Shown here: one piece after another, positions 2,175 through 14,411 of the stretch
How the letters are laid out: each line of letters starts with the position of its first letter
Position numbering within the stretch: the first letter of the stretch is position 1
Assembly: GCA_009784555.1 (NCBI GenBank)
Contig: WRBO01000010.1
Location: 1 to 58,939, forward strand
DNA from: Bacillota bacterium
GTDB lineage: Bacteria > Bacillota > Clostridia > Christensenellales > UBA1242
Reading direction: 5' to 3'
DNA length: 58,939 bases
Notes under the pieces: model-generated
The model's input: only the letters and a program-made list of their open reading frames with translations
What the model was told of the DNA's origin: nothing
Database searches by the model: none
Translations under genes and position numbers: made by a program

Positions 2175-2924
2175 TTACTTCTCGAATCGTGCGATTAATT
2201 TCGCGGGGGTCAGGGACGATTTACTCTCGCCCGAAACATCCATTGTGACCTCTCCCCCCTGCATCATCCACATACGGTCGCCGTACGTGATTGCATCGGT
2301 CAGGTTGTGCGAAATCATAATCGTTGTGATACCCATTTCGCGGACAAGACGGTTTGTAATCTCCATGACTTGCTTTGCTATTTTCGGGTCAAGGGCCGAT
2401 GTATGTTCATCGAGTAACAGCAGGTTAGGCTTCTGCAAGGTCGCCATCAAGAGTGTAACGACCTGGCGCATGCCACCCGACAACAACCCCGCAGGACGGC
2501 GTAAACAGGTATCCAAACCCAAGTCGTATTCGGCAAGACGTTCACGAAAGAAATCCAGATTCTTTTTCGGTAGTGCCAGTTTCAATCCGCGCCGCCGTCC
2601 ACGGTTATAAGCAATTGCCAAATTTTCCGCAACCGTCAGGTCTGGACACACACCCGTATTCGGGTCTTGGAACACACATGCAATCATGTTCGCGCGTTGG
2701 TGCCGTGTGCGGCGCGTAATGTCCACGCCGTCGATAACAACCGAACCCGTAGTCGGGCGCAGGTTGCCATTGATGATATTCATCAAAGTTGATTTGCCCG
2801 CACCGTTACCACCGATGATTGAAACAAATTCACCGTCACCGATTGTAAGGTTAGTTGTTTTAAGGGCCACGTTACGCTCTATGCCGTTATCGAACGTTTG
2901 CGATATGTTTTTAAGTTCTACCAT
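2175..2924 (-). CDS. ABC transporter ATP-binding protein of TrpXYZ-type amino-acid importer
   Basis: Cytoplasmic ATPase (249 aa) that powers the importer whose permease is the preceding gene. It has Walker A GGNGAGKST (about residue 38), a Q-loop FQDPNTG, signature LSGGMRQ, Walker B LLLLDEHTSALD and an H-loop MISHNL. The subfamily (COG1101-like) accompanies COG4120 permeases and COG2984 binding proteins. The gene overlaps the permease by 14 nt, so the two are translationally coupled. It is the only ATPase gene near the four binding-protein genes and is inferred to serve all of them. Confidence 0.93.
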   Translation of the reverse strand: MVELKNISQTFDNGIERNVALKTTNLTIGDGEFVSIIGGNGAGKSTLMNIINGNLRPTTGSVVIDGVDITRRTRHQRANMIACVFQDPNTGVCPDLTVAENLAIAYNRGRRRGLKLALPKKNLDFFRERLAEYDLGLDTCLRRPAGLLSGGMRQVVTLLMATLQKPNLLLLDEHTSALDPKIAKQVMEITNRLVREMGITTIMISHNLTDAITYGDRMWMMQGGEVTMDVSGESKSSLTPAKLIARFEK

Positions 2925-3870: not shown

Positions 3871-4905
3871 TCAGTAAACTTCGGTTGCGGCATCCAACAT
3901 GCGTTGCGGGATGGTCATTCCGAATGATTCGGCCAGGGTGCGGTTTATTATCAAATCCAATGCCGTTGCCGGTGAACGGTAGTATCGCATTCCGTTTATA
4001 CGTATGTCGCCAGGTGTTTCACCGCCAACCAAGACACGGAATGCCAATTCAGCCGTCATTGCACCCAAGTGCAGATAGCATGGTGCCATGGACAGTACCG
4101 CCGCACCCGCCGCTACCTTTGCCGCGAATGATGACATGATTGGCAATGGACGTGAACCGTTAGCATTCAAATCGCCTATCATTTGGAACGCCGCATCCGT
4201 TCCCAGACGGTTGTCTTGGCCCGTGAATATTGCCCTGTAACGTGGATTGCCTTGGATTGCGGTTATGCGGGTAGTGACCTGGCCCACGTCCGTTACCCCG
4301 TGACGTGTGACAGTTATTCCATCTGCGGCGGCCGCGTCGACCAACATGTCGCCTTGGGCACGGACATTGTCCTCGTCAGATGAATACAGGTATGCCACAT
4401 AGAATCCGCCCGTAGGTATTCCAACCAGTTCGCGCAGAAGTGCGACTTGGGCCGTCATGTCCACCACGTCGCTTGTCCCCGTTGTGAACGGGTGCAACAT
4501 TTGTGATGCGGTGGGGTTAGAGGCCGAACTGAATACGACAGGTGTCGTGCCGCCCGCCCCCGCAGCCGCAGCGATTGTTGCGTTGACAGCGGTCGTTCCA
4601 ACCGAGAACATCATATCAACGCGTTGTGCCAAGAAATTGTTTGCGATTGTTGTTGCGGTTGCCGCATCTCCATTCGCATTTTGGTACAGGAAGTTCACGC
4701 TGTACCCCGCGTCGTCCATCAATTCAGTCAAACGAGTTCGGAAGCCCTCGGTTGAGTCACAGGCGGCCGGGAATACCAAGAATTGATTAAGGCCGATTGT
4801 GAAGTCGTAATTGTTCCGATTGCGGCATCCCGTCATGAACATTCCCATTGTTGCTACCGCCACTACCATTGTTACTACTGCAAAGTGTTTTATAGATTTT
4901 TTCAT
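3871..4905 (-). CDS. Solute-binding lipoprotein 1 of the ABC importer (branched-chain amino acid candidate)
   Basis: Extracytoplasmic receptor of the ABC_sub_bind (PF04392/COG2984, TrpX-like) family, 344 aa. It has an N-terminal signal peptide ending in lipobox MTGC, then two alpha/beta lobes; family blocks are YQNANGDAATATTIANNF, SVGTTA, YSSDEDN and GQDNRLG. The chosen start is the ATG after AAAGGAGACAGCA; an in-frame ATG 11 codons upstream has no such site. It is closer to copy 3 than to copies 2 and 4. Upstream lie its own promoter, leader peptide (Leu/Val/Ile codons) and terminator, which imply that it takes up branched-chain amino acids. The ligand is inference. Confidence 0.9.
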   Translation of the reverse strand: MKKSIKHFAVVTMVVAVATMGMFMTGCRNRNNYDFTIGLNQFLVFPAACDSTEGFRTRLTELMDDAGYSVNFLYQNANGDAATATTIANNFLAQRVDMMFSVGTTAVNATIAAAAGAGGTTPVVFSSASNPTASQMLHPFTTGTSDVVDMTAQVALLRELVGIPTGGFYVAYLYSSDEDNVRAQGDMLVDAAAADGITVTRHGVTDVGQVTTRITAIQGNPRYRAIFTGQDNRLGTDAAFQMIGDLNANGSRPLPIMSSFAAKVAAGAAVLSMAPCYLHLGAMTAELAFRVLVGGETPGDIRINGMRYYRSPATALDLIINRTLAESFGMTIPQRMLDAATEVY

Positions 4906-4940
4906 TGCTGTCTCCTTTTTGTGATATGAACTGTACACAA

Positions 4941-4982
4941 AAGAAAAAGCTCGGTTCCTCTAATTTCCAAGGGTTACCGAGC
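4941..4982 (-). terminator. Attenuator terminator 1
   Basis: Minus-strand hairpin with arms GCTCGGTAACC and GGAACCGAGC followed by TTTTTC. It lies between leader peptide 1 and binding-protein gene 1, so it controls read-through rather than ending a gene. The 5' arm (TCGGTAACCC) is a perfect 10-bp complement of the leader codons encoding SGYR. Confidence 0.88.
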
Positions 4983-5021
4983 AGTTACTTTTTAGTAGAA
5001 TTCAAATCATACAAAAAGTCA

Positions 5022-5087
5022 TCACAGTCGGTAACCCGAAGTGACGATAATGAGAACCAAGCCGTAATTCTTTTTAGTACAGTTCAT
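5022..5087 (-). CDS. Leader peptide 1 (Leu/Val/Ile-rich), attenuator of binding protein 1
   Basis: A 21-codon frame: it begins MNCTKKNYG, continues with the regulatory run LVLIIV (codons TTG GTT CTC ATT ATC GTC) and ends TSGYRL before TGA. The frame is shared with three sister leaders. The ATG is 8 nt below the -10 box and has no Shine-Dalgarno, so the mRNA should start at or within 1-2 nt of the AUG. Model: ribosomes stalled at Leu/Val/Ile codons leave GGGTTACCGA free to pair with the terminator 5' arm, giving read-through; fast translation to the stop covers it and the terminator forms. The first 11 nt of the transcript also pair perfectly with 4926-4936, past the terminator. Confidence 0.85.
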   Translation of the reverse strand: MNCTKKNYGLVLIIVTSGYRL

Positions 5088-5095
5088 ATCTCATA

Positions 5096-5124
5096 TATAT
5101 ACACTTTGCGGGTGGGTGTGTCAA
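5096..5124 (-). promoter_or_regulatory. SigA-type promoter of leader 1
   Basis: -35 TTGACA (5119-5124), 17-bp spacer, -10 TATATA (5096-5101) on the minus strand. The predicted start point coincides with the leader AUG at 5087. The -35 lies only 8 bp past the stop of the upstream binding-protein gene. Confidence 0.85.
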
Positions 5125-5132
5125 CAGGTTTT

Positions 5133-6128
5133 TTAGAACGTGCGGTCAGGGTCTGCCCTGTTGCGTAGAGTTTGGGGAATGGTGAAGTTGATTGCGGTGG
5201 CCTCGGTTATGTTGACGTATAGGTTCAGCGAGTCGGCGGTTGGGACATGGAATGGGATGGTTCCAGGTTGTGTGCCGTTAATCAAGATTTCAAACGCCAA
5301 GTCGGCGGCGGCCGCACCGTTCGCCGCAAAGCACACCGCGAGGGATGCAATCGCACCCGACGGAACGTGGGTTGGTGAGGCAACGACAATCGGCAGTTGG
5401 GTCAGCGAGCGGTTGAGGGTTTGAACCATTTGCATGTTGCTGCTGATTTGGTTGTCTTGACCAAGGTAGATTGCCGTTATGTCCGAGCGTGAACGGATGG
5501 TTGTGAACACGGCATCAAGGTCGGGGGTCAGGGACGTTATACCAAACGTTGCGATTGAGTCGGTGGGGGCCGCGGCGATTAATCGGTCACGGGTGTTGCG
5601 GCTGTTGTCCTCGGCCGTTGTGTAGATGAATGCAACGCGGTTTGTTGGGGACAGAGGCGCGCCGAGAAGTTCGGTTAGTAGTTCGACCTGGCTGTCCATT
5701 GGGAGTGCGGATGACGAACCAGTTAAGTTTTGTCCCACCAGTCCCGCGCCGACGGGGTCGGTTATGACACCGAAGACCTGGGGGATGCCTGCAATTTCTG
5801 CGATTGGGCGGGTGGCTTGGGACGCGCCCGTACCAAGCGTGAACATCAGGTCTACCCTTTGGGCGGCGAAGCCGTTAGCAATAGTTGTTGCGGCGGCCAT
5901 GTCACCGCCCGCATTATGGTAGGTGAAGCGGATGGTTTTCCCAGCATCGTCCATCAATTCGGTTAGGCGGTCGCGGAAGCCAGGGGTTGCCATTTCAAAT
6001 GCGGGGATTTGTGAATTTGCCAAAATTCCAATTGTAAAGTCGTGGTCGTCGCGGTTACGGCATCCCGTTAGGAGGATTCCCATAGAAGTGATGACAACGA
6101 TGGCGACGGCGGTAAGTATCTTTTTCAT
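5133..6128 (-). CDS. Solute-binding lipoprotein 2 of the ABC importer (tyrosine/aromatic candidate)
   Basis: TrpX-like ABC_sub_bind receptor, 331 aa, with signal peptide and lipobox LTGC followed by RNRDDHDFTIGIL. Family blocks include YHNAGGDMAAATTIANGF, MFTLGTGASQA, GVITDPVGAGLV, YTTAEDNS and LGQDNQI. The start is the ATG after AAAGGAAATATTT; the frame stays open 20 codons upstream through the leader terminator, but that segment is not protein-like. It is most similar to copy 4. Its leader peptide contains Phe, Tyr, His and Tyr codons, so an aromatic ligand, most likely tyrosine, is inferred. No permease gene is adjacent; it must use the shared one. Confidence 0.9.
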   Translation of the reverse strand: MKKILTAVAIVVITSMGILLTGCRNRDDHDFTIGILANSQIPAFEMATPGFRDRLTELMDDAGKTIRFTYHNAGGDMAAATTIANGFAAQRVDLMFTLGTGASQATRPIAEIAGIPQVFGVITDPVGAGLVGQNLTGSSSALPMDSQVELLTELLGAPLSPTNRVAFIYTTAEDNSRNTRDRLIAAAPTDSIATFGITSLTPDLDAVFTTIRSRSDITAIYLGQDNQISSNMQMVQTLNRSLTQLPIVVASPTHVPSGAIASLAVCFAANGAAAADLAFEILINGTQPGTIPFHVPTADSLNLYVNITEATAINFTIPQTLRNRADPDRTF

Positions 6129-6162
6129 AAATATTTCCTTTTTTGAGTTTTGAACGTTGCAC

Positions 6163-6210
6163 AAAAAAACTCGGGTTTCGTTTCGCATATTGCAATCCGG
6201 TTACCGAGTT
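6163..6210 (-). terminator. Attenuator terminator 2
   Basis: Minus-strand hairpin AACTCGGT...ACCCGAGT followed by TTTTTTT, between leader peptide 2 and its gene. Its 5' arm and adjoining bases (CGGTAACCGGAT) complement the leader codons ATCCGGTTATCG over 12 bp. Here the pairing uses CCGG where the sister copies use GGG/CCC, which is compensatory change. Confidence 0.88.
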
Positions 6211-6246
6211 AGTTTTGTAGAATATTCAAAGCCGTACAGAAAACTA

Positions 6247-6309
6247 TTACATGCGATAACCGGATGTAATATAGTGATAAGCAAAACCGAGCCTTTTTGT
6301 GCCGTTCAT
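6247..6309 (-). CDS. Leader peptide 2 (Tyr/His), attenuator of binding protein 2
   Basis: A 20-codon frame: MNGTKRLGF, then AYHYI (GCT TAT CAC TAT ATT), then TSGYRM and TAA. The conserved flanks match leaders 1, 3 and 4; only the middle differs. Two adjacent-but-one Tyr codons plus Phe and His suggest control by tyrosine or by aromatic amino acids together. The ATG lies 7 nt after the -10 box with no Shine-Dalgarno, implying a leaderless leader. The TCCGGTTATCG codons sit in the loop of a small hairpin (TATTACAT/ATGTAATA) and can instead pair with the terminator. Confidence 0.85.
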   Translation of the reverse strand: MNGTKRLGFAYHYITSGYRM

Positions 6310-6316
6310 ATCAATA

Positions 6317-6345
6317 ATTATGCACGGAGGCCGTCAGGTTGTCAA
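6317..6345 (-). promoter_or_regulatory. SigA-type promoter of leader 2
   Basis: -35 TTGACA (6340-6345), 17-bp spacer, -10 CATAAT (6317-6322) on the minus strand; the -10 ends 7 nt before the leader ATG. Confidence 0.87.
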
Positions 6346-6366
6346 TCACTAATTTTTATTAAGTTG

Positions 6367-7368
6367 TCAAATAATTCTGTCTGCGCGAGCGAGAAGGGTT
6401 TCGGGGATTGTTATACCCAGTTGTGTTGCCAGGGTTTGGTTGATTAGTAGCGATAGGGATTCGTACGTTGGGTAGTAGATTTCCAGGTCGCCAGGGGTTG
6501 CACCGTTGGCCAAAATTTCATAGGCCAAGTTTGCCGCCGCACGTCCGATTGCCGCGTAATCCATTCCCGCCGAGGCGATGCCGCCACCGATTGCCATTGC
6601 CGTATCCCCCGTTACAATTGGGAGCGAGCGTGGTGATAGGTAGTTCAGGTTAGCGACAGATTGCATATTTGCGGCGAGCAAATTGTCTTGGCCGATGTAG
6701 ATTGCGACGATTTCGTTATCACCAGCAATTGCAGTCATTACGGTTTGCAGGTCGGTGATTGTGTTGATGCTGTGACGACGCACCTCTATCCCCATTTCGG
6801 TTGCCGCGGTTGTTAGCATGTCGCCTTGGACACGGCTGTTGTCCTCTGACCCCGTGTACAGATATGCGATTGCCCCGTTGATTTCGCCGCCGAGGAGGTC
6901 ACGGATAAGTTCGACCTGGAGTTTCATATCCAGCGCGTCCGATGCCCCCGTGATGTTTGCGTGTCCGTATAGTCCCGCGGTATATGGGGATGTAACGGCA
7001 CTGAAGACCACCGGTGTGTTTGCCACGATTGCGGCGTCGCGGCTGACCTGGGCACTGGGCGTTGCTATTGCCTGGATAAGGTCGACATTTTGGGCGAGGA
7101 AGTTGTTAGAAATCGTAGTTGCGATTGCACGGTCTGCGTTTGCATTTTGGTAGATGTACCGTACCGTGTAGCCACGCGCGCCCATCAATTCGTTTAGGCG
7201 TGATTGGAAGTTTGTTCGAGCGAGGTCGAGCGCGGGGTGTTGCAAGAATTGATTTATTCCCACGGTGAAGTCGTAGTTATTGCGGTTACGACATCCAGTT
7301 AGCATAAGGCCAGACATTCCGATGACCATGACGGTCAGCACACATATAGATATTTTTAATTTTTTCAC
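6367..7368 (-). CDS. Solute-binding lipoprotein 3 of the ABC importer (phenylalanine candidate)
   Basis: TrpX-like ABC_sub_bind receptor, 333 aa, GTG start preceded by AAGGAGAAATATC. Signal peptide with lipobox LTGC, then RNRNNYDFTVGINQF. Blocks shared with copy 1 include IYQNANADRAIATTISNNF, YTGSEDNS and IGQDNLLA, so copies 1 and 3 form one pair and copies 2 and 4 another. Its leader peptide has the run FFFGF, so phenylalanine is the inferred ligand. The gene ends 22 bp before the -35 of promoter 2. Confidence 0.9.
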   Translation of the reverse strand: MKKLKISICVLTVMVIGMSGLMLTGCRNRNNYDFTVGINQFLQHPALDLARTNFQSRLNELMGARGYTVRYIYQNANADRAIATTISNNFLAQNVDLIQAIATPSAQVSRDAAIVANTPVVFSAVTSPYTAGLYGHANITGASDALDMKLQVELIRDLLGGEINGAIAYLYTGSEDNSRVQGDMLTTAATEMGIEVRRHSINTITDLQTVMTAIAGDNEIVAIYIGQDNLLAANMQSVANLNYLSPRSLPIVTGDTAMAIGGGIASAGMDYAAIGRAAANLAYEILANGATPGDLEIYYPTYESLSLLINQTLATQLGITIPETLLARADRII

Positions 7369-7399
7369 GATATTTCTCCTTGATTAAATTGAACTGCAC

Positions 7400-7443
7400 A
7401 AAAAAACTCGGCTTCCCTTTTTGCGTACGTTGGGTTACCGAGT
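7400..7443 (-). terminator. Attenuator terminator 3
   Basis: Minus-strand hairpin with arms ACTCGGTAACCC and GGGAAGCCGAGT followed by TTTTTTT, between leader 3 and its gene. GGTAACCC is a perfect complement of the leader codons GGGTTACC. Confidence 0.88.
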
Positions 7444-7484
7444 CGTGAGTTTAATGTAAAGAAGGTGAATTACAGGAAAAAACT

Positions 7485-7544
7485 CTACGCAGGGTAACCC
7501 GTCGTAAAGCCAAAAAAGAAACCAAGCCTTTTTATGCAGTCCAT
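7485..7544 (-). CDS. Leader peptide 3 (Phe-rich), attenuator of binding protein 3
   Basis: A 19-codon frame: MDCIKRLG, the run FFFGF (TTC TTT TTT GGC TTT), then TTGYPA and TAG. Four Phe codons in five positions point to phenylalanine control. The ATG is 7 nt after the -10 box and has no Shine-Dalgarno. The ACGGGTTACCCTG segment near the stop lies in the loop of a CTTTACG/CGTAGAG hairpin and can switch to pairing with the terminator 5' arm. The first 14 nt of the transcript can pair with the bases just past the terminator T-run. Confidence 0.87.
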   Translation of the reverse strand: MDCIKRLGFFFGFTTGYPA

Positions 7545-7551
7545 AGCAATT

Positions 7552-7580
7552 ATTATGCATATGGAGAGGTGCATTGTCAA
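7552..7580 (-). promoter_or_regulatory. SigA-type promoter of leader 3
   Basis: -35 TTGACA (7575-7580), 17-bp spacer, -10 CATAAT (7552-7557), 7 nt to the leader ATG; the same geometry as promoter 2. Confidence 0.87.
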
Positions 7581-7611
7581 TGTCTTTTTTGGCCTTGGGG
7601 GTAATTTTTCC

Positions 7612-7710
7612 GAACAGTTCGGGCCGAGGCCTAAAGGCCGAGCGTTTGGCCCGAAAGCGGAGCTTGGGGGGGGTTATTGATTTTGCGTTTTTTACTGGGG
7701 GGGGTTTTTA
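7612..7710 (-). repeat. Dispersed double poly-C repeat, copy 2
   Basis: On the plus strand two G8 tracts (7666-7673 and 7697-7704) separated by 23 nt, next to an inverted repeat TTCGGGCC (7618-7625) / GGCCCGAA (7648-7655). The order and spacing match the copies at 17-125, 16228-16280 and 44205-44310. The stretch 7581-7918 holds no intact gene: it contains this repeat, a 50-codon frame and a promoter module. Confidence 0.78.
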
Positions 7711-7844
7711 CGCGTCACCCGCGCGCCGATTCGGTTTCGCCCCGTTGGGGCAAAACGCTCATCTATTGCTTGGTTCCGCTTCTCTTCGGGCCAGACGCGA
7801 ACAGGCACAGCCTGTTCGGCCCGAACTTCTTTTTTGTGAAGCAT
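7692..7844 (-). pseudogene. 50-codon frame behind a repeated promoter module, probably decayed
   Basis: The frame begins MLHKKEVRAEQ after GGGAGGG, is Arg/Glu-rich, and ends RKNPPQ when it meets the G8/C8 tract. It sits behind the same promoter block that drives the intact DUF6291-like gene at 43838, but shares no clear protein similarity with it. Most of it is made of palindromic repeat sequence. One base more or fewer in the C8 tract would extend the frame. I treat it as a remnant; it could instead be a contingency gene. Confidence 0.3.
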
Positions 7845-7856
7845 TTAGAGTCCCTC

Positions 7857-7903
7857 CCACTTTACAGTAACATGGTAATTTTTTTAATCAAGAGGGTTAC
7901 TGA
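7857..7903 (-). promoter_or_regulatory. Repeated promoter-operator module, copy 1
   Basis: Minus strand: a 17-bp block TGTCAGTAACCCTCTTG leads into -35 TTGATT, then 16 bp and -10 TACTGT, overlapped by an imperfect palindrome CCATGTTAC-T-GTAAAGTGG (7857-7875). The block recurs at 16456-16503 and 43777-43817. Confidence 0.6.
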
Positions 7904-7918
7904 CAAAAATTGGTGGGT

Positions 7919-8923
7919 TTATAGTGTGCGGGCGGCGCGGTTGGTGACCGTGGTTGGGACGGTGAAGTTTAGAGCCGCGGCCTCGGTTTGGTTGACCCAG
8001 AGTGAGAGGGTTTCGGCGACAGGTCGGTAGAATGGAATGTCGCCAGGGGTTACGCCGTCGATGAGGATGCGGAATGCGATGTCGGCGGCGCGCACGCCGT
8101 TAGTCCAGAAATCAACGTTAAGTGCGGCGACAGCCCCCATGCCCACGATTGGCAGGTCGGCAACAACGATTGGCAATGGACGTGTTGAAGAACGGTTTAA
8201 GTTTTGAACCATTTGCATGTTGTTGGTGATTTGGTTGTCTTGGCCGATGTAGATGAGTTGGATTTCAGGGTTGGCGGCGATTGAGATGAAGATGGAGTTA
8301 AGGTCGCTTAATTGATTTATTGAGAAGCGTGTTACCGTGAAGCCCATTTCGTCGCCCGCGGCAGCGAGGCGGTTGCCCGTAGCGCGGCTGTTGTCTTCGG
8401 ATGCCGTGTAGATGTATGCGACATTTCGCAGTTCAGAAAGACCGCCCACCATGTCAGCCATTAGGCCGACTTGGGTTTCCATTGGAGCCGCACTGCTGCT
8501 TCCAGATGTGTTTGGCGTGACAAGGCCCGCGCCGACCGGGTCGGTTATGACACCAAAGACCTGGGGTATATTTGCCACGGAAGCGATGTCACGCGCGGCT
8601 TGTGACCCGCCCGTCCCCAATGTGAACATCATGTCGACGTTTTGTGCAGCGAAGCTGTTTGCTATTGTTGTTTGGGTCGCCGAATCACCGCCCGCATTGC
8701 GGTAGTCGAATTGGACAGTTTTGCCCTCGGATTCCAGCAAAAATCGAAGGCGCGATTCAAATCCCCTGCGCCCCTGTTCCAAGGCAGGAACCTGGGCTGT
8801 GTTTAGTATTCCAATCGTAAAGTCGTAGTCGGTGTCCCGATTTCGGCATCCAGTCAGGAGGAGTCCCCCCGCCACCACCGTGGTTGCGATTATCGCGGTC
8901 ATTAGAAGTTTTAGCTTTTTCAT
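7919..8923 (-). CDS. Solute-binding lipoprotein 4 of the ABC importer (histidine candidate)
   Basis: TrpX-like ABC_sub_bind receptor, 334 aa, ATG preceded by AAGGAAACATAAAAA. Signal peptide with lipobox LTGC, then RNRDTDYDFTIGIL. Blocks YRNAGGDSATQTTIANSF, MFTLGTGGSQA, GVITDPVGAGLV, YTASEDNS and IGQDNQI are shared most closely with copy 2. Its leader peptide carries four successive His codons, so histidine is the inferred ligand. It is the gene farthest from the permease, separated from copy 3 by repeat sequence, and so probably an independent transcript. Confidence 0.9.
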   Translation of the reverse strand: MKKLKLLMTAIIATTVVAGGLLLTGCRNRDTDYDFTIGILNTAQVPALEQGRRGFESRLRFLLESEGKTVQFDYRNAGGDSATQTTIANSFAAQNVDMMFTLGTGGSQAARDIASVANIPQVFGVITDPVGAGLVTPNTSGSSSAAPMETQVGLMADMVGGLSELRNVAYIYTASEDNSRATGNRLAAAGDEMGFTVTRFSINQLSDLNSIFISIAANPEIQLIYIGQDNQITNNMQMVQNLNRSSTRPLPIVVADLPIVGMGAVAALNVDFWTNGVRAADIAFRILIDGVTPGDIPFYRPVAETLSLWVNQTEAAALNFTVPTTVTNRAARTL

Positions 8924-8967
8924 TTTTTATGTTTCCTTTTTTGTTTTGAGTTTTAATGACACTGCAC

Positions 8968-9014
8968 AAAAAAACTCGGTTCCCCCATACGTTCGTACAT
9001 CTGGGTAACCGAGT
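8968..9014 (-). terminator. Attenuator terminator 4
   Basis: Minus-strand hairpin with arms AACTCGGTTACCC and GGGGGAACCGAGTT followed by TTTTTTTG, between leader 4 and its gene. The 3' arm GGAACCGAG also complements the leader codons CTTGGTTTC; the 5' arm complements the GGGTACC codons with one bulge. Confidence 0.88.
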
Positions 9015-9053
9015 TATTCTTATGGAATGTATTAAATCCTCACAAAACAACCT

Positions 9054-9116
9054 TTACATGCGGGTACCCGATGTAAAGTGGTGATGGTGGAAACCAAGCC
9101 AGTTTGTGCAGTTCAT
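9054..9116 (-). CDS. Leader peptide 4 (His run), attenuator of binding protein 4
   Basis: A 20-codon frame: MNCTNWLGF, then HHHH (CAC CAT CAC CAC), then FTSGTRM and TAA. The four-His run resembles the classical his operon leader of enterobacteria in logic, though not in sequence. The ATG lies 8 nt after the -10 box and lacks a Shine-Dalgarno. A hairpin CTTTACAT/ATGTAAAG holds the CGGGTACCCG switch segment in its loop. Stalling on the His codons would free that segment for the terminator 5' arm. Confidence 0.9.
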   Translation of the reverse strand: MNCTNWLGFHHHHFTSGTRM

Positions 9117-9124
9117 AATACCAA

Positions 9125-9154
9125 TATATACAACATGCGTGTAAAGGTTGTCAA
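9125..9154 (-). promoter_or_regulatory. SigA-type promoter of leader 4
   Basis: -35 TTGACA (9149-9154), 18-bp spacer, -10 TATATA (9125-9130), 8 nt to the leader ATG. It starts 10 bp past the stop of the radical SAM gene. Confidence 0.83.
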
Positions 9155-9163
9155 CAGTTAATT

Positions 9164-10090
9164 TTAATCCGTTTTTTTGCGTTCGTTGATTGCGCCGATG
9201 TTTAGCAGGTCGTTTGCGGCGTCGTTAAGAAGTTTGGCGCGGGCATCGGCGAATTCCTTTGTACTGGCAAATTTTTGGCGGCGCAACATTTCCGCCCCAT
9301 AGATATCATTGAATGCGGTTGCCATTTCGTTGTAGCTGTTGTGTCTTTTTACCCGGTCCGAGTGCAGTAGGATATTGGCCACCCCGTCGTCGGAGATTAC
9401 GTTGCCGTATTTGGTCTTTTTGTGGTTTGCATAGTTGCCGCCGGTTACCGCGTCGCCGTGGCAGTTCATCAGCATGAATGATGCGTTTATTATTCCGTTT
9501 TCGCGGTCGATGTGTGCGTGCGGGATATCCATTTCGGGGTTTGGGGGGAAGATTGGTAGACCGTAGGCCTCGGTGAGGTTTTCGGCGCGACCCTCGGAGA
9601 AGATAAAGGAACTGGGAATAATCCTTCCGTTTATAATTGGATGTGTGAAGAGTTTATAGAATGTTTCGGCGTATTTATCCAAGCCGTATTGTTTTAGCGC
9701 ATCTTCGACATGCCATTCGTCGAATGATACGGCCCAGCCACTGCGGCTTTCGGGGCCGTTTTGGGCGCGTTTGACCATATCGACCAGTTGGGCCATGGCC
9801 GCACCGTTGTATAGGGTGCCGTTTAGATAGCCGCTGGAACGGTCGTATTTGGTTCCGTTCCTCTCCAATGCCCCGTTTATTGCCGTGAGTGCGCGGGGTG
9901 CCATCATGACCTCTCCCGATACGATACCCAAGTTATTGATGTGTTCGATGTCGCGGAATGCCGCGTTGGCCGTTGGTTCGTCGATTTCCGCATTTGAGGG
10001 TTCGCCGACCTGGCATACTTTGCATTTTAGATTACATCGCTCGGATGGGTTTATCGCAAAGTCGGTAAAGTTAACACGGTACTTTTTCAC
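9164..10090 (-). CDS. Radical SAM domain protein of unknown function
   Basis: 308 aa from a GTG start. Near the N-terminus FAINPSERCNLKCKVCQ gives the CX3CX2C motif that binds the 4Fe-4S cluster and S-adenosylmethionine in radical SAM enzymes. The remainder is not one I can place: it lacks an obvious SPASM or twitch Cys cluster and has an Asp/His-rich middle (FDEWHVEDAL, IPHAHIDREN, MNCHGDAVTGG). The GTG lies 6 nt after a TATAAT box and has no Shine-Dalgarno, so a leaderless mRNA is likely. An in-frame TTG upstream is the promoter -35 itself and was rejected as a start. It follows proC but has its own promoter. Confidence 0.7.
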   Translation of the reverse strand: MKKYRVNFTDFAINPSERCNLKCKVCQVGEPSNAEIDEPTANAAFRDIEHINNLGIVSGEVMMAPRALTAINGALERNGTKYDRSSGYLNGTLYNGAAMAQLVDMVKRAQNGPESRSGWAVSFDEWHVEDALKQYGLDKYAETFYKLFTHPIINGRIIPSSFIFSEGRAENLTEAYGLPIFPPNPEMDIPHAHIDRENGIINASFMLMNCHGDAVTGGNYANHKKTKYGNVISDDGVANILLHSDRVKRHNSYNEMATAFNDIYGAEMLRRQKFASTKEFADARAKLLNDAANDLLNIGAINERKKTD

Positions 10091-10096
10091 GCCATC

Positions 10097-10126
10097 ATTA
10101 TAGCAAATTTCGATGTTTGAAGTCAA
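10097..10126 (-). promoter_or_regulatory. Promoter of the radical SAM gene (leaderless)
   Basis: -35 TTGACT (10121-10126), 18-bp spacer, -10 TATAAT (10097-10102), then 6 nt to GTG. The -35 overlaps the proC stop codon. Confidence 0.8.
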
Positions 10127-12015
10127 GATTTTCGCATTTCGATGGCGCGTTTTAGGCAGGCATCCATTGATGCCATTATGATTTCGGTGAAGTTGTTTGT
10201 GCGCAAGGTGTTTACCATTTCAATGGTTGTTCCGCCGGGCGAGCACACGCGGTCGGTTAGGGTTTCGGGTGATTCGTCCGAGTCCAAAATCATTTGGCAC
10301 GCGCCCATGACCGTTTGGGCGGCCATGCGTTTGGCGGTGTTGGGGTCGAGGCCGTGATTGAATTTTGTCATGGCATCGACGAGGAGGTACGCGAGGACGG
10401 GAGAAGAACCGGATATTGGTATTACGTTGTCCATTAGGGGTTCGGGGAGTTCGTAGACGGTGCCGAATTTTTCCAAAGTGTCTTTGACAAATTTGAACTC
10501 CGTGTCCGTTATTTCGTCTCCGCGGCATATCGCAGTTACGCCCATGCCTACCATTGCGGGGGTGTTTGGCATTGTGCGGATGACACGCGCACCAGACCAG
10601 TCCATGACAGTTTTGATTGTTATGCCAGGCGCAACGGTTACCAGAATCTTGGAGTTGAGATTTTTTAGTGTTGATAGTACGGCGTGGTGAATTTGCGGTT
10701 TGATTGTTAAAAAGATTATGTCGGAGGCGTCGATGACGGCTTGGTTTCGTTCGCCGTCGGAGATTTCGACCTTTTGTCCTATGCGCGATATCATTGCGCG
10801 TGCCATGTTGCCGTGGCCGATGAAGCCGATTTTCATGTTGTTATCCTCCCCCCTGGTTTGTCCGTTTCCCGTGATGACGTATTTGTATGTGGTTAGTGCG
10901 TCCAATGCGAATGGGCCGCGAGTGTGGAGTTTTTGGGTGCTTATCCCTATTTCCGCGCCCATGCCGAATTCGCAACCGTCACTGTACCGTGTTGATACAT
11001 TATGATACACGCAAGCGGCGTCAACGCGTGAGAGAAATTTTTGTGCGTTCGTTTTGTTTTGTGTTACGATACATTCGCTGTGCCGTGTTCCGTATTCGTT
11101 TATGTGGGTGATTGCATCGTCAATGTTGTCCACCGTTTGCACGGCGAGGATTAGGTCGTTGAATTCGGTTGCCAAGTCGTGTTCGGTTGCGGGATAGCGG
11201 AGTTCGATGCCGTGGTTTTCCAGATTTGCCATTGTCAGAAATTTGTCGGCGATGGATTTGTGTAGCAAGAGGGTTTCGGCCGAGTTGCAGACGGATGGGC
11301 GTTGTGCCTTTGCGTTTATTAAAATTTTCACGCCCATTGCCAAGTCGGCGTGTTCGTCGATGTACACGTGGCAGTTGCCTGTGCCCGTTTCGATTATTGG
11401 GACGGTTGCGTTTTCGCGGACGGTGCGGATGAGGTTTGCGCCCCCGCGTGGGATTAGCACGTCCAGATATTTGTCGAGGCGCATCATTGCGGATGCGGTT
11501 TCGCGGGAGGTGTCGGTTACAAGTTCTAGTATGTCATGCATACCATAGGGTTTTAGGGCCGATTTCATCACACGTACCAGTTCACGGTTAGAGTTAAGTG
11601 CATCAGCCCCGCCGCGCAGTAATACCGCGTTCCCCGATTTGATACACAGAACCGCGGCATCCACCGTGACATTTGGGCGGGATTCGTAAATCATGCCGAC
11701 GACACCGAGGGGAACGCGGCGTTTTTCAATTTGCATGCCGTTTGGTCGTGTGAGTGTTTCGCAGGGGGTCGCGAGAGGGTCGGGCAGTTTTGCGACATCG
11801 CACACGGCGGCCGCAATTGCACGGATTCGCGCATCGTCCAGCATTAGGCGGTCGTGGTTTGATGTTGCACGTGCCATGTCCGTGTTGTTTTCGCGGATTA
11901 TCGAGTCAATGTTTTTTTCCAGTTCGGCGGCGATTGCGAGAAGTGCATCGTTTCGCAAATCCAAGTCTATGTTTGCATTGCGTAGTTTTTTACCCAAGAT
12001 TGATAAGTGTTCCAA
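10123..12015 (-). CDS. proA-proC: Gamma-glutamyl phosphate reductase / pyrroline-5-carboxylate reductase fusion (ProA-ProC)
   Basis: A single frame carries steps two and three of proline synthesis. Residues 1 to about 393 are ProA (NADPH-dependent aldehyde dehydrogenase fold; motifs VPLGVVGMIYESRPNVT, GNAVLLRGG, PRGGANLI, the Cys-bearing RPSVCNSAETLL, and GAEIGISTQKLHTRGP). From the internal Met at 10836 it is ProC (237 aa; FIGHGNMA Rossmann loop, RTMPNTPAMVG, SGSSPVLAYLLVDAM, SPGGTTIEM). The ProA start is taken as TTG after GGGAGGGAAACAAA; an ATG 8 codons upstream has no site. It overlaps proB by 26 nt. The join is suspicious: see the G6 site at 10834-10863. Confidence 0.88.
   Translation of the reverse strand: MEHLSILGKKLRNANIDLDLRNDALLAIAAELEKNIDSIIRENNTDMARATSNHDRLMLDDARIRAIAAAVCDVAKLPDPLATPCETLTRPNGMQIEKRRVPLGVVGMIYESRPNVTVDAAVLCIKSGNAVLLRGGADALNSNRELVRVMKSALKPYGMHDILELVTDTSRETASAMMRLDKYLDVLIPRGGANLIRTVRENATVPIIETGTGNCHVYIDEHADLAMGVKILINAKAQRPSVCNSAETLLLHKSIADKFLTMANLENHGIELRYPATEHDLATEFNDLILAVQTVDNIDDAITHINEYGTRHSECIVTQNKTNAQKFLSRVDAACVYHNVSTRYSDGCEFGMGAEIGISTQKLHTRGPFALDALTTYKYVITGNGQTRGEDNNMKIGFIGHGNMARAMISRIGQKVEISDGERNQAVIDASDIIFLTIKPQIHHAVLSTLKNLNSKILVTVAPGITIKTVMDWSGARVIRTMPNTPAMVGMGVTAICRGDEITDTEFKFVKDTLEKFGTVYELPEPLMDNVIPISGSSPVLAYLLVDAMTKFNHGLDPNTAKRMAAQTVMGACQMILDSDESPETLTDRVCSPGGTTIEMVNTLRTNNFTEIIMASMDACLKRAIEMRKS
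10834..10863 (-). other. G6 run, internal ribosome site and proC start inside the proA-proC frame
   Basis: On the minus strand ACCAGGGGGGAGGATAAC leads to the proC ATG at 10836, so a strong Shine-Dalgarno precedes an internal proC start. With one G fewer in the G6 run (10848-10853) proA would end at a TGA overlapping that ATG (ATGA), the usual coupled arrangement. The fusion may be a real mutation, polymerase or ribosome slippage, or a sequencing indel. Confidence 0.7.
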
Positions 12016-12703
12016 TTTGTTTCCCTCCCATAACATCATGTATTTGTTTTGGGTTTGAACCCATCATGATTATTGTTTTTGCATTTGCGATTTCGGCGGC
12101 GCGCAGTTTCGTTATCATGCCTCCGCAACGGCCGTCACCCGCGTGTTCCCATACATCGGCGAGGCAAGTTATTTCACCGATGACCACCCCGTTTATCATG
12201 AACCCATCGACATCCGACAATAAAATCAGCAGGTCTGCGTTGATGATATTCGCGACATATGCCGAGAGTGTATCGTTATCGCCGACGACGATTTCGTCCA
12301 CCGCCACCGTGTCGTTTTCGTTGACGATTGGGACGATGCCCAGTTCATGCAAGGCGGCAAAGGTATTTACCGTGTGTTGGTACTTTTCGTCGTTGTCGAG
12401 GCAGTTTTTTGTCAGGAGAACCTGGCCGATTGGTTTTCCGTGCTTTTTGAATTTTTCCTCGTAAATTGCCATTAGGAGGGATTGGCCGACGGCCGCCGCG
12501 GCCTGTTTATGCGGCAGTTTTTTCGGCCGTTCGGGGATGCCCAAGCGATGGCATCCCACCGAAATGGCACCCGAGGATACCAAGACCACATAGTGTCCCG
12601 AGTCGCGCAGTTCGGCAATTGTTTTGACGAGTTCATCCACAACAGGCTCGCGCAGTCCCCCGTTGAAAAGTGTGCTTGTCCCTACCTTGATTACGATTTT
12701 CAT
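11990..12703 (-). CDS. proB: Glutamate 5-kinase, short form without PUA domain
   Basis: Catalyses the first step of proline synthesis, ATP-dependent phosphorylation of glutamate. 237 aa, so only the amino-acid kinase domain is present; E. coli ProB (367 aa) has an extra C-terminal PUA domain. Motifs: IVIKVGTSTL at the N-terminus, SSGAISVG, the NENDTVAVDEI block, FGDND-like VGDNDTLSAYVA, and LLSDVDGFM. The start is the ATG after GAGGAGGGGATAAA; the frame remains open 36 codons upstream, but that part is the attenuator terminator. It overlaps proA-proC and is controlled by a Pro-rich leader peptide. Confidence 0.92.
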   Translation of the reverse strand: MKIVIKVGTSTLFNGGLREPVVDELVKTIAELRDSGHYVVLVSSGAISVGCHRLGIPERPKKLPHKQAAAAVGQSLLMAIYEEKFKKHGKPIGQVLLTKNCLDNDEKYQHTVNTFAALHELGIVPIVNENDTVAVDEIVVGDNDTLSAYVANIINADLLILLSDVDGFMINGVVIGEITCLADVWEHAGDGRCGGMITKLRAAEIANAKTIIMMGSNPKQIHDVMGGKQIGTLINLG

Positions 12704-12867: not shown

Positions 12868-12896
12868 AACATATGATATTAATTTGCGGGTGTCAA
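12868..12896 (-). promoter_or_regulatory. Promoter of the proline attenuator
   Basis: -35 TTGACA (12891-12896), 17-bp spacer, -10 TATGTT (12868-12873). It overlaps the last codons of the upstream asparaginase-like gene, which has the same direction. Confidence 0.82.
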
Positions 12897-14276
12897 TGGT
12901 TTCTTTTGCGCCGCGGCGGTGGGGTTTGAGAAATTTGGGTTGAATGCCCAGTTTTTAAGGGCATCGGGGTTCATGTATTTTATGTCTTCGATTTGTTTGT
13001 CGGTCATTTCACCCAGAATTTGTGCGACGAGATTAACGACCTTGTCCTTTGCGGGATAGCTGTTGATTGCGCGGCGGTAGACGACCTCTTCTTCTTTTGT
13101 ATAGCGTCTGTCCATGAAGCGCGCGTTGGAGAGGTCTTTGTCGGTTGATTGCGGGTCGTAGAGGCGGCTGTTTGCGGCTAGGTAAATTCCCGGCGGTAGC
13201 ATGGTTGATGCCATGAGCGCGTAGCCGACATTGAAACCCGCGTCGCCGTTGTATGCCCCGTACGAGAGCGGAACCATAGCCGAGAGTAGCACGACGGTCG
13301 CGTTGTTTACGTGTTCGTCCGCGTTGTCTTGGAGAAAGCGTGCCGTTTCCGCAATCGTATATGTTCCGTGCGGGATGACAAAGTTTTTGGTGGACATTGT
13401 TTTTACGCCGTCGCTGCCTATTACCCCGCGCACCTCTATTGATATGCTCTCGACCAATTGTGTTCGCCACAGGTCGTTGAGGTCACGGCTGTCCATACGT
13501 ATTATTTCTTTGTAACGCAGGTCTTGGACAATTCGCAGTTGTCCGCGGATGTATTGTTCCACGAAAGAGTTCACGCCAGACACCGTCGAGGCCGTGTCTT
13601 TTGCCGCGTTCCAAGTGCCCTCTATTGTTCCGCCCATGTCGAACACAGCGATGCCATCGTCGTCGCGGCGTTGTTCGTCCAGGGTTTTGAAGTCATCCGC
13701 CGTACACATGAGGCCGTTGCGCATGCATACGACGATGCCCGGGCGAACAAGTTGCCCCGCCGCCACCGCCGCGCCGAAGTTTGCGGGCGCGTCAGAGTGC
13801 GCCAATTCGGGTGACAGTTGCGAGCCCCAGAGGACGACGCGTTTTTTACTGATGAATCCGTCCAATTTTTTACCCAAGTCGGACAGCAGTTTGTCAATGT
13901 TATAAAGGCCACAGTTGATGATGATTACATCTTGGGTAGAGACCTTGATAGCTTGGGCCAGCAGCATGATGTCGTTGGCACTGATATCTGTGCTGTTTTT
14001 TGCCGCTACCGTGCGAAAGTGGATGTTTGATTTGTAATCGGGCAAGACATAGCGGCGCGGGTCGGTGAGCAGGTCGCGGTAGTATGGGGTTGTTGTGACC
14101 TCTATCCCGTCGAATTTTGGGTTTATTACCGAGTTGGCCGTGCCGCCAAAGTTTATAATCTCCATTGACCGAATTGGACGCGGGACAAGGAGGCCCGACG
14201 GTGCCTTTTCCAGACATGTTTGGTCGAAGTATTTGCGGTTTCCAGTTAATTGGGCGGTGGTGGTTTTCTTGCTCAT
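12879..14276 (-). CDS. Tandem asparaginase-fold protein with altered active site
   Basis: 465 aa made of two asparaginase-like modules. Module 1 (about 38-200) has INFGGTAN, INCGLYNID, and LWGSQLSPELAHSDAPANFGAA. Module 2 (about 215-420) has FDMGGTIEG, MDSRDLND, PHGTYTIAETA and LLSAMVPLSYGAYNGDAGFN. In type I/II asparaginases the second catalytic motif is THGTDT; here the Thr is lost in module 1 (GLYN) and the following Asp is Tyr in both modules, while the GGT threonine is kept. It may hydrolyse a different amide or may only bind a ligand. AAAGGAGAATTGTA precedes the ATG. It is divergent from a LysR-type gene that carries the same fold. Confidence 0.7.
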   Translation of the reverse strand: MSKKTTTAQLTGNRKYFDQTCLEKAPSGLLVPRPIRSMEIINFGGTANSVINPKFDGIEVTTTPYYRDLLTDPRRYVLPDYKSNIHFRTVAAKNSTDISANDIMLLAQAIKVSTQDVIIINCGLYNIDKLLSDLGKKLDGFISKKRVVLWGSQLSPELAHSDAPANFGAAVAAGQLVRPGIVVCMRNGLMCTADDFKTLDEQRRDDDGIAVFDMGGTIEGTWNAAKDTASTVSGVNSFVEQYIRGQLRIVQDLRYKEIIRMDSRDLNDLWRTQLVESISIEVRGVIGSDGVKTMSTKNFVIPHGTYTIAETARFLQDNADEHVNNATVVLLSAMVPLSYGAYNGDAGFNVGYALMASTMLPPGIYLAANSRLYDPQSTDKDLSNARFMDRRYTKEEEVVYRRAINSYPAKDKVVNLVAQILGEMTDKQIEDIKYMNPDALKNWAFNPNFSNPTAAAQKKPLTPAN

Positions 14277-14411
14277 TACAATTCTCCTTTTTGGTTTACA
14301 TTTATCTTACGCGGGTTTGTTGGGGCCTGCAATGCTCTGATTTGCCCATAACCTGTTACTTTTTGGAACATATCGGTGGACATTTGTGACAAAGGGTGGC
14401 ATCATGGGTTT

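What the first reader, a model, noticed from the sequence alone, without database searches (positions are those of the whole stretch)
4926..9154. Family of four ribosome-mediated transcription attenuators with different amino-acid codons
Each of four paralogous binding-protein genes is preceded by promoter, 19-21 codon leader peptide and intrinsic terminator. The peptides share MNCTK-like starts, LGF/GLV and TSGYR-like ends, but carry LVLIIV, AYHYI, FFFGF or HHHH in between. The codons for the shared end (GGGTTACC-like) can pair with the 5' terminator arm (GGTAACCC-like) in all four; copy 2 has changed both sides to CCGG. This is the 2:3 versus 3:4 logic of the trp/his attenuators, which is well known in Proteobacteria, while Firmicutes mostly use T-boxes and TRAP for these genes. 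A single set of four sister attenuators with swapped specificity in one transporter locus appears undescribed.
Basis: partly seen in the sequence, partly recalled or inferred. Interest (0 to 1): 0.97.

Follow-up and report, generated by a model that had tools for sequence, protein, structure and literature searches.

The report
Leaderless amino-acid attenuators replacing T-boxes
In an unnamed bacterium with a small genome, four neighbouring uptake genes each begin with a short RNA switch that is predicted to open when one particular amino acid (branched-chain, tyrosine, phenylalanine or histidine) runs short; predicted switches of the same build stand before other amino-acid genes in its genus, where the T-box switch common among its relatives was not found.

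Summary
On the minus strand, four paralogous TrpX-like binding-protein genes each follow a promoter, a 19-21-codon ORF (LVLIIV, YHY, FFFGF, HHHH) and a U-tracted hairpin. Alternative 1:2, 2:3, 3:4 and 1:4 pairings exist, with compensatory changes. The reading as ribosome-mediated attenuators is well supported but too narrow. (1) The ATG lies 7-8 nt after the predicted -10: probably leaderless. (2) Sisters occur genus-wide: 33 ORFs with terminators in five genomes, 24 with a codon run (shuffled mean 3.9). Where the gene behind a run is tied to one amino acid, 10 of 10 agree (MetQ, glutamine synthetase family, CysK, AsnA, tRNA(Asn) ligase, HisRS, DapB). (3) T-boxes: 0 of 5 genomes of the genus, 167 of 192 others of the family. 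(4) Not found in my literature searches: the first codons pair with RNA just behind the terminator (permutation 0/5000; two control regions null), so read-through RNA would lock its own leader start. Against: equilibrium folds often give the wrong state; simple masking fits 16 of 27 leaders; two other T-box-less genera tested show no leaders; nothing was tested experimentally. Leader-peptide attenuators in Firmicutes and leaderless ones in mycobacteria are known. New variant of a known kind.

The parts
9125..9154 (-). A4 (His) promoter TTGACA 9154-9149, 18-nt spacer, TATATA 9130-9125
9054..9116 (-). A4 leader ORF MNCTNWLGFHHHHFTSGTRM*, start 8 nt after the -10, no Shine-Dalgarno-like sequence before it
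8968..9014 (-). A4 terminator (3:4) and U tract; its 5' arm is region 3
   Evidence: -19.9 kcal/mol
8955..8970 (-). A4 3' arm of the distal 1:4 helix, behind the terminator; 5' arm is 9116-9103
7919..8923 (-). SBP4, PF04392 binding lipoprotein (TrpX-like), predicted His
7552..7580 (-). A3 (Phe) promoter TTGACA-17-CATAAT
7485..7544 (-). A3 leader ORF MDCIKRLGFFFGFTTGYPA*
7400..7443 (-). A3 terminator and U tract
   Evidence: -13.8 kcal/mol
7390..7402 (-). A3 3' arm of the distal 1:4 helix
6367..7368 (-). SBP3, PF04392, predicted Phe; TrpX model 179.5 bits, below its cut-off of 390
6317..6345 (-). A2 (Tyr) promoter TTGACA-17-CATAAT
6247..6309 (-). A2 leader ORF MNGTKRLGFAYHYITSGYRM*
6163..6209 (-). 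A2 terminator (weak, 5-6 closing pairs) and U tract
   Evidence: -14.3 kcal/mol
6151..6162 (-). A2 3' arm of the distal 1:4 helix
5133..6128 (-). SBP2, PF04392, predicted Tyr
5096..5124 (-). A1 (Ile/Leu/Val) promoter TTGACA-17-TATATA
5022..5087 (-). A1 leader ORF MNCTKKNYGLVLIIVTSGYRL*
4938..4982 (-). A1 terminator and U tract; region 3 (4980-4971) pairs with region 2 (5037-5028) over 10 bp
4923..4936 (-). A1 3' arm of the distal 1:4 helix, perfect 14-nt complement of 5090-5077 including the leader ATG
3871..4905 (-). SBP1, PF04392, predicted branched-chain amino acids
2911..3843 (-). permease (PF02653), the only one beside the four binding proteins
2175..2924 (-). ABC ATPase (PF00005), the only one beside the four binding proteins

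Best explanation
Each of the four binding-protein genes is preceded by a promoter-like site, a 19-21-codon reading frame, alternative 1:2, 2:3 and 3:4 pairings and a U-tracted hairpin, which together are predicted to act as a leaderless, ribosome-mediated transcription attenuator that would open when branched-chain amino acids, tyrosine, phenylalanine or histidine is short. Inferred steps: a 70S ribosome loads on the 5'-terminal AUG. If the cognate aminoacyl-tRNA is scarce it stalls on the control codons, which keeps the 1:2 hairpin open; region 2 then takes region 3, the terminator cannot form, and the gene is transcribed. If the amino acid is plentiful the ribosome reaches the stop codon, covers region 2, and 3:4 ends transcription. 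In read-through RNA the first codons then pair with the sequence just behind the terminator (distal 1:4). That would hide the leaderless AUG and the 5' end, shutting the spent sensor and perhaps shielding the mRNA. Four receptors of different specificity would share one permease and one ATPase. The same design, with other codons, stands before other amino-acid genes in the genus, where T-boxes were not found.
For: Anatomy. Pair counts on the four copies: 2:3 has 2 pairs changed on both sides, 94.4% of cells paired, reached by 26 of 500 shuffles; 1:4 has 5, 91.6%, 3 of 500; 1:2 has 4, 88.1%, 8 and 15 of 500; 3:4 has 1, 96.4%, 122 of 500, so no support from variation there. Ribosome masking before region 4 is made (edges +9 and +12): most control codons in the A site give 7-11 expected 2:3 pairs, the stop codon about 0, in all four leaders; exceptions are A1's last Val (5.6), A3's last Phe (3.6) and A4's first His (1.4). 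Over 35 genus leaders (33 by promoter pattern plus 2 Met), matched 2:3 duplexes average -14.4 kcal/mol against -10.7 permuted, 0 of 5000. 5' end against RNA behind the U run, 37 leaders (35 plus 2 of G021): -13.5 against -8.6, 0 of 5000; two control regions null, 1347 and 4694 of 5000. Codon runs: 24 of 33 leaders, shuffled-peptide mean 3.9, maximum 10 in 2000. Codon-gene agreement: 10 of 10 run-positive leaders before a gene tied to one amino acid: Met-MetQ (2), Gln-glutamine synthetase family (1), Cys-CysK (2), Asn-AsnA (2), Asn-tRNA(Asn) ligase (1), His-HisRS (1), Lys-DapB (1); plus Tyr before two tyrosine phenol-lyase/tryptophanase genes. T-box: 0 of 5 genomes of the genus, 167 of 192 others of the family (Fisher 6e-5).
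Against: Equilibrium folds that include region 4 do not give the wanted states: with the ribosome on control codons, 3:4 still forms at 5 of 6 control codons of copy 1 and at every control codon of copies 2 and 4; only copy 3 shows 2:3, at its first three Phe codons. With the ribosome on the stop codon, 3:4 forms in copies 1 and 4, but in copies 2 and 3 the 1:4 helix wins over the terminator. So the scheme must rest on co-transcriptional order. At the +15 footprint edge, 2:3 drops to 0.3-4.4 pairs at the last control codon of each leader, and without a ribosome copies 1-3 also fold into 2:3, so an untranslated leader may default to read-through. Over 27 run-positive leaders, stalling beats the stop-parked ribosome by more than one pair in 16 (for A1 that script took KK, not the LVLIIV run). 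Copy 2 (YHY) does not meet my own run rule. Fifteen of the 27 precede genes that cannot decide. One of the ten matches (G002 Met) was found by starting from the gene, one (AsnA) lies in another genus, and HisRS sits about 500 nt down behind a small ORF. Six other genera of 42 lack T-boxes too; of three such genomes tested only G021 shows leaders. The search pattern itself demands a start near the -10, so 'leaderless' is partly selected for. SBP substrates are untested: all four resemble TrpX but stay below its cut-off.
Confidence: 0.8

Rival explanations
1. The elements are structured, translated leaders that act mainly on translation or mRNA stability: the long 1:4 + 2:3 hairpin shields the mRNA or hides a start, and the hairpin with U tract is a minor terminator.
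For: The full-length fold 1:4 + 2:3 is the minimum-energy state of all four (-57.6 to -75 kcal/mol), and in copies 2 and 3 1:4 beats the terminator even with a ribosome at the stop codon. 1:4 is conserved. Leaderless Cys-run ORFs of mycobacteria are said to regulate translation of downstream genes (PMC9031893, passage).
Against: A hairpin of at least 6 pairs and -8 kcal/mol followed by at least 5 T stands behind 33 of 52 short ORFs of the genus, and its 5' arm fits the leader's own region 2 better than other leaders'. In the four, the Shine-Dalgarno of the binding-protein gene lies outside the helices.
Confidence: 0.13
2. The four are T-boxes or another known riboswitch class, too divergent for the models.
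For: TrpX genes of other Firmicutes are T-box regulated (S. suis, PMC9382623, passages); in the 16 order-level genomes searched by both, 4 of 9 PF04392 matches above cut-off have a T-box within 250 nt upstream.
Against: No Rfam family reaches its threshold in the window, no T-box in this genome. From ATG to the end of the lock the leaders are only 157-163 nt and are occupied by the ORF and its pairings.
Confidence: 0.02
3. The near-palindromic units of about 165 nt are copies of a small mobile element (MITE-like), and frames and terminators are by-products.
For: Four related copies in 4.2 kb with terminal inverted repeats; the model rings on both strands; the leaders are more alike (73-77% DNA identity) than their genes (61-69%), as if some copying of leaders went on.
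Against: The only further copy found by the model in this genome carries Met codons and stands before metQ in the same orientation. Across the genus the arms differ in sequence between leaders but fit their own partner.
Confidence: 0.03

Closest known systems
trp/his/phe/ilv leader-peptide attenuators of Proteobacteria (recalled), with isolated cases in Actinobacteria and Firmicutes (PMC1262725, PMC2965389, PMC9413887, passages)
   Same: Short ORF with control codons; alternative 1:2, 2:3 and 3:4 pairings; intrinsic terminator; region 2 overlaps the end of the ORF.
   Different: No Shine-Dalgarno, start at or near the predicted 5' end; one design with codon runs for about ten amino-acid classes (Ile/Leu/Val, Phe, His, Met, Asn, Cys, Lys, Gln, Tyr, Thr; Arg and Trp below my run rule); before transporters, tRNA ligases and biosynthesis genes alike; extra helix from the 5' end to behind the terminator.
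Leaderless poly-cysteine ORF attenuators of mycobacteria (Canestrari et al. 2020, seen only as cited in PMC9031893 and PMC13236596)
   Same: Leaderless ORF with a run of control codons upstream of other genes.
   Different: Cysteine only, described as regulating translation of downstream genes; an earlier study saw no obvious terminators there (PMC1262725, passages). Here: predicted intrinsic terminators, many amino acids, the 1:4 helix.
His leader-peptide attenuators in some Firmicutes (PMC2965389; PMC9413887, passages)
   Same: Gram-positive lineages; leader peptide where relatives use T-boxes.
   Different: There single genes or operons (hisS*, hisZ, his); here a genus-wide set with no T-box found.
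T-box of trpXYZ (S. suis, PMC9382623, passages)
   Same: Homologous binding-protein gene; control by amino-acid supply through terminator choice.
   Different: Senses tRNA directly; no leader peptide.

Membership tests
Ribosome-mediated transcription attenuator | short ORF with repeated codons of one amino acid or class | tested here: met
   for the four (copy 2, YHY, only loosely: it fails my run rule); 24 of 33 genus leaders, shuffled mean 3.9
Ribosome-mediated transcription attenuator | intrinsic terminator between the ORF and the gene | tested here: met
   (-13.8 to -19.9 kcal/mol plus U tract); prediction only; not listed by the simple scan
Ribosome-mediated transcription attenuator | antiterminator (2:3) exclusive with terminator (3:4), with covariation | tested here: met
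   few sequences; 3:4 itself barely varies
Ribosome-mediated transcription attenuator | codons fit the amino acid of the regulated gene | tested here: met
   10 of 10 decidable run-positive leaders plus 2 TPL/tryptophanase; 15 of 27 not decidable, the window's own among the undecided since their substrates are unknown
Ribosome-mediated transcription attenuator | stalled ribosome favours 2:3, ribosome at stop favours 3:4 | tested here: inconclusive
   2:3 part holds; equilibrium folds with region 4 mostly disagree; 16 of 27 leaders
Ribosome-mediated transcription attenuator | leader translated; read-through rises on starvation | not testable with these tools
   needs ribosome profiling, term-seq or reporters
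T-box | match to RF00230 | tested here: not met
Leaderless mRNA | start codon at or within a few nt of the 5' end, no Shine-Dalgarno | tested here: inconclusive
   ATG 7-8 nt after the predicted -10 in the four, no SD-like sequence; transcription starts not mapped
TrpX (NF041285) | score above the curated cut-off of 390 bits | tested here: not met
   SBP1-4: 103.7, 136.7, 179.5, 152.7 bits; they are members of PF04392

The most novel reading that the evidence does not exclude
This genus has given up T-boxes and runs its amino-acid economy with one modular switch: a leaderless, self-locking attenuator. The codons set the amino acid, the terminator makes the decision, and a helix between the 5' end and post-terminator RNA, formed only in read-through mRNA, closes the leaderless start so that each transcript samples the amino-acid level once. 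Changing a few codons retargets the switch, as the four sisters with one shared transporter core show.
Probability: 0.43. Interest if true: 0.92.

Novelty: new variant of a known kind. Interest (0 to 1): 0.84.

Why it matters
It would be a lineage in which one RNA sensing strategy (T-box) gave way to another (leader-peptide attenuation) across many genes, with relatives to compare. It gives a natural series of attenuators whose specificity changed by codon swaps. It also points to an RNA element, the 5'-end lock, that may make leaderless translation self-limiting. The leader codons give testable substrate predictions for four orphan TrpX-like receptors and several unannotated genes.

Tried and rejected
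T-box and other Rfam families: no match in the window, no RF00230 in this genome. Mobile-element reading: see rivals. The same four-gene locus in relatives: PF04392 has no match in the four congeners (65-91% complete) and two weak below-cut-off hits in 31 other family genomes. G121 hit of the model (24.9 bits): set aside as probable chance. G003 C1 hit (L033): promoter, terminator and pairings look right, but two frames compete (GTG start ..LIIIL.. against a start-less frame like the sisters', the latter read by eye); not counted. L032 of G001 (weaker -35) is outside the 33, 35 and 37. L051 (one Cys codon before cysK, no terminator found) and L057 (QQ before glnA) fail the run rule and are not in the 10 of 10. 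Of 33 leaders with terminator, 9 fail the run rule, among them the window's copy 2 and the Trp, Arg and Cys-Cys leaders of this genome; QQEF in G002 (L102) stands before a D-aminopeptidase family gene, no fit. A 7-sequence alignment aligned the Met and G003 leaders poorly and was not used for pair counts. Masking of all leaders did not support the simple stop-codon rule for 11 of 27.

Counts: the pattern gave 158 hits in the five genomes of the genus against 14 for the reversed control; 142 were examined, the rest were not listed, not fetched or fell out as duplicates. In six other-genus genomes 107 hits against 15 control, 89 examined: 3 with terminator, 1 with codon run.

Literature: nine searches answered, open-licence papers only. 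PMC9031893, PMC1262725, PMC2965389, PMC9413887, PMC9382623 and PMC13236596 were read as passages; PMC5794164 as search listing only; Canestrari 2020 not held. In these searches no paper describing this set or the 1:4 helix appeared; that is not proof of absence.

Full report
WHAT IS THERE. The window is contig 10 of a 1.12-Mb, 88% complete genome without a name. On the minus strand lie four PF04392 lipoproteins (TrpX-like binding proteins, 38-58% identical to each other), then one permease and one ATPase. Each binding-protein gene has its own promoter-like site, its own 19-21-codon frame and its own hairpin with U tract. The frames are MNCTKKNYGLVLIIVTSGYRL, MNGTKRLGFAYHYITSGYRM, MDCIKRLGFFFGFTTGYPA and MNCTNWLGFHHHHFTSGTRM. 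The ATG follows the predicted -10 by 7 or 8 nt and no Shine-Dalgarno-like sequence precedes it, while the binding-protein genes themselves have AAGGA-type sites. So the leader frames are probably read from the transcript's very end (inference; starts not mapped).

PAIRINGS. Four pairings can be written. 1:2 is a local hairpin from the codons after the control run to the stop codon. 2:3 joins the SGYR codons to the 5' arm of the terminator. 3:4 is the terminator. 1:4 joins the first codons to the terminator's 3' arm and U tract (proximal part) and to the sequence behind it (distal part). On the four copies 1:2, 2:3 and 1:4 carry 4, 2 and 5 pairs changed on both sides and keep 88, 94 and 92% of cells paired; sliding the partner by one column drops this to 29-53%, and shuffles reach the observed number of such pairs in 8, 26 and 3 of 500. 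3:4 hardly varies. Only four sequences stand behind these counts. A further relative, in congener G001 (MNCTKRLGFFYSSIMGC before a small ORF and an ABC ATPase), has GGUUGCUGAG:CUCGGCAACC as 2:3, another paired change (fold).

MECHANISM TEST. Folding the transcript before region 4 exists, most control codons in the A site leave 7-11 expected 2:3 pairs (edges +9, +12), and the stop codon leaves about none, in all four leaders; the last control codon is weaker, most so at edge +15 (0.3-4.4). With region 4 present, equilibrium folds mostly disagree: 3:4 forms at 5 of 6 control codons of copy 1 and at every control codon of copies 2 and 4, and with the ribosome at the stop codon copies 2 and 3 form 1:4 instead of the terminator. 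The classical scheme then has to rest on the order of transcription. Without a ribosome, copies 1-3 fold into 2:3 and copy 4 into 1:2.

THE WIDER SET. The model of the four found one further copy in the genome. It carries three Met codons and stands before an NlpA/MetQ lipoprotein with an ATPase and a permease gene. A promoter-plus-ATG pattern gave 19 hits in this genome against 3 for the reversed pattern, and 158 against 14 in the five genomes of the genus. Of 142 hits examined, 52 open a frame of 8-45 codons, 33 of these are followed by a terminator, and 24 of the 33 carry a codon run; shuffled peptides give 3.9 on average and never more than 10 in 2000. Three of the window's four meet the run rule; copy 2 (YHY) does not.

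CODONS AND GENES. Adding two Met leaders (one in congener G002 before a 63%-identical metQ, found by starting from the gene) and one Asn leader in another genus (G021), 27 run-positive leaders can be compared with their genes. Ten precede a gene tied to one amino acid and all ten agree: Met-MetQ (2), Gln-glutamine synthetase family (1), Cys-CysK (2), Asn-AsnA (2), Asn-aspartate--tRNA(Asn) ligase (1), His-HisRS (1, about 500 nt down, behind a small ORF), Lys-DapB (1). Curated NCBIfam cut-offs are passed by four of the nine proteins scanned there (tRNA(Asn) ligase, AsnA of G002, CysK of G004, DapB); the others rest on Pfam matches above cut-off (MetQ, Gln-synt_C of L114, PALP of L098, HisRS fragment) or, for AsnA of G021, on a score of 288.3 against 292.8. 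For L114 the GlnA and gamma-glutamylputrescine synthetase models score alike (86.3 and 86.0). Two Tyr-run leaders precede genes of the tyrosine phenol-lyase/tryptophanase family, where the TPL model scores above the tryptophanase equivalogs but below its cut-off. The other 15 cannot decide: PF04392 (3), amino-acid permeases (2), a family-3 binding protein, an aminotransferase, a tRNA-editing domain with a racemase, an EamA-like and a cobW-like protein, an ABC ATPase, and 4 without a Pfam match. No clear contradiction was found. Leaders below the run rule fit more loosely: QQEEMQ before glnA, RRASKRR before a family-3 binding protein whose best NCBIfam model is Lys/Arg/Orn (below cut-off), WRW before an amino-acid permease; QQEF before a D-aminopeptidase-family gene does not fit.

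RNA RATHER THAN PEPTIDE IS CONSERVED. The core UUCGGGUUACCGA is read as SGYR in some leaders and as FGLPS in the Asn leader of this genome. Between the two Met leaders the terminator stem changed on both sides while the frame stayed.

THE 5'-END LOCK. In 37 leaders the first 33 nt pair with the 42 nt behind the U run better than with those of other leaders: -13.5 against -8.6 kcal/mol, none of 5000 permutations as good. Nucleotides 34-66, or sequence 60-102 nt behind the hairpin, show nothing (1347 and 4694 of 5000). The own partner is the single best of all candidates in 11 of 37, so the fit is strong in part of the set only (values per leader run from -29.7 to -2.3). The helix takes at least two bases of the AUG in 24 of 38 leaders listed, one of the 38 being a G016 hit without codon run. 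The distal part can exist only in read-through RNA, so it cannot influence termination; the proximal part, strong in the window's four, could compete with the terminator. That the lock silences the leader start or protects the mRNA is inference.

T-BOXES. RF00230 is found in 0 of 5 genomes of the genus and 167 of 192 others of the family (strict filters; 0 of 5, 16 of 19 other family genomes, 16 of 16 order-level genomes). The five are 65-91% complete. Four of nine PF04392 matches above cut-off in those 16 order-level genomes have a T-box within 250 nt upstream; a fifth lies too near a contig end to tell. The match is not exclusive: 6 further genera of 42 lack T-boxes, and of three such genomes tested only G021 showed leaders.

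AGAINST PRIOR WORK. Attenuators of this logic are textbook in Proteobacteria (recalled). They are reported singly in Firmicutes (PMC2965389, PMC9413887, passages; PMC5794164, listing) and Actinobacteria (PMC1262725, passages), and leaderless Cys-run ORFs are known in mycobacteria (cited in PMC9031893, PMC13236596). What I did not find in nine searches of open-licence papers is a set for about ten amino-acid classes in one genus without T-boxes, or the helix from the 5' end to behind the terminator.

VERDICT. New variant of a known kind; function predicted, not shown.

Noticed in passing
14376-15194 (+) with 12879-14276 (-); second copy at L036 8329-9114 (-) with 9205-10578 (+): A LysR-type HTH domain fused to an asparaginase domain (PF00126 + PF00710), divergent from a gene with an asparaginase domain; the same pair recurs beside the Met transporter. 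Looks like a metabolite-sensing regulator built from an enzyme.
   Followed up: partly
10123-12039 (-): Aldedh (PF00171, ProA-like) and pyrroline-5-carboxylate reductase (PF14748, ProC-like) domains in one frame.
   Followed up: no
10088-10126 (-): The gene at 9164-10126 also seems leaderless: TTGACT-18-TATAAT, then GTG 6 nt on. Several other pattern hits open long genes, so leaderless initiation may be common in this genome.
   Followed up: partly
L097, L207, L120, L050, L098, L169: Asn and Cys leaders carry two clusters of control codons, one early and one near the stop (for example CCC...ICCIVC, NNN...MNNN); the simple stop-codon model does not explain this.
   Followed up: partly
L041, L184, L126: Amino-acid permeases of one family stand behind leaders with different codons: Trp in this species, Lys in two congeners.
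   Followed up: no
L032 (G001) and L033 (G003): Relatives of the window's leaders stand before unknown small proteins of 59 and 65 residues without any Pfam match.
   Followed up: no
L180 (G001) and L281 (G021): Leaders with VRR and VRRERLIR, in different genera, stand before the same kind of gene (partial cobW match in both), hinting at an Arg switch.
   Followed up: partly
7600-7860: GC-rich stretch with several inverted repeats (GTTCGGGCC-like) between SBP4 and A3, unlike its surroundings (by eye).
   Followed up: no
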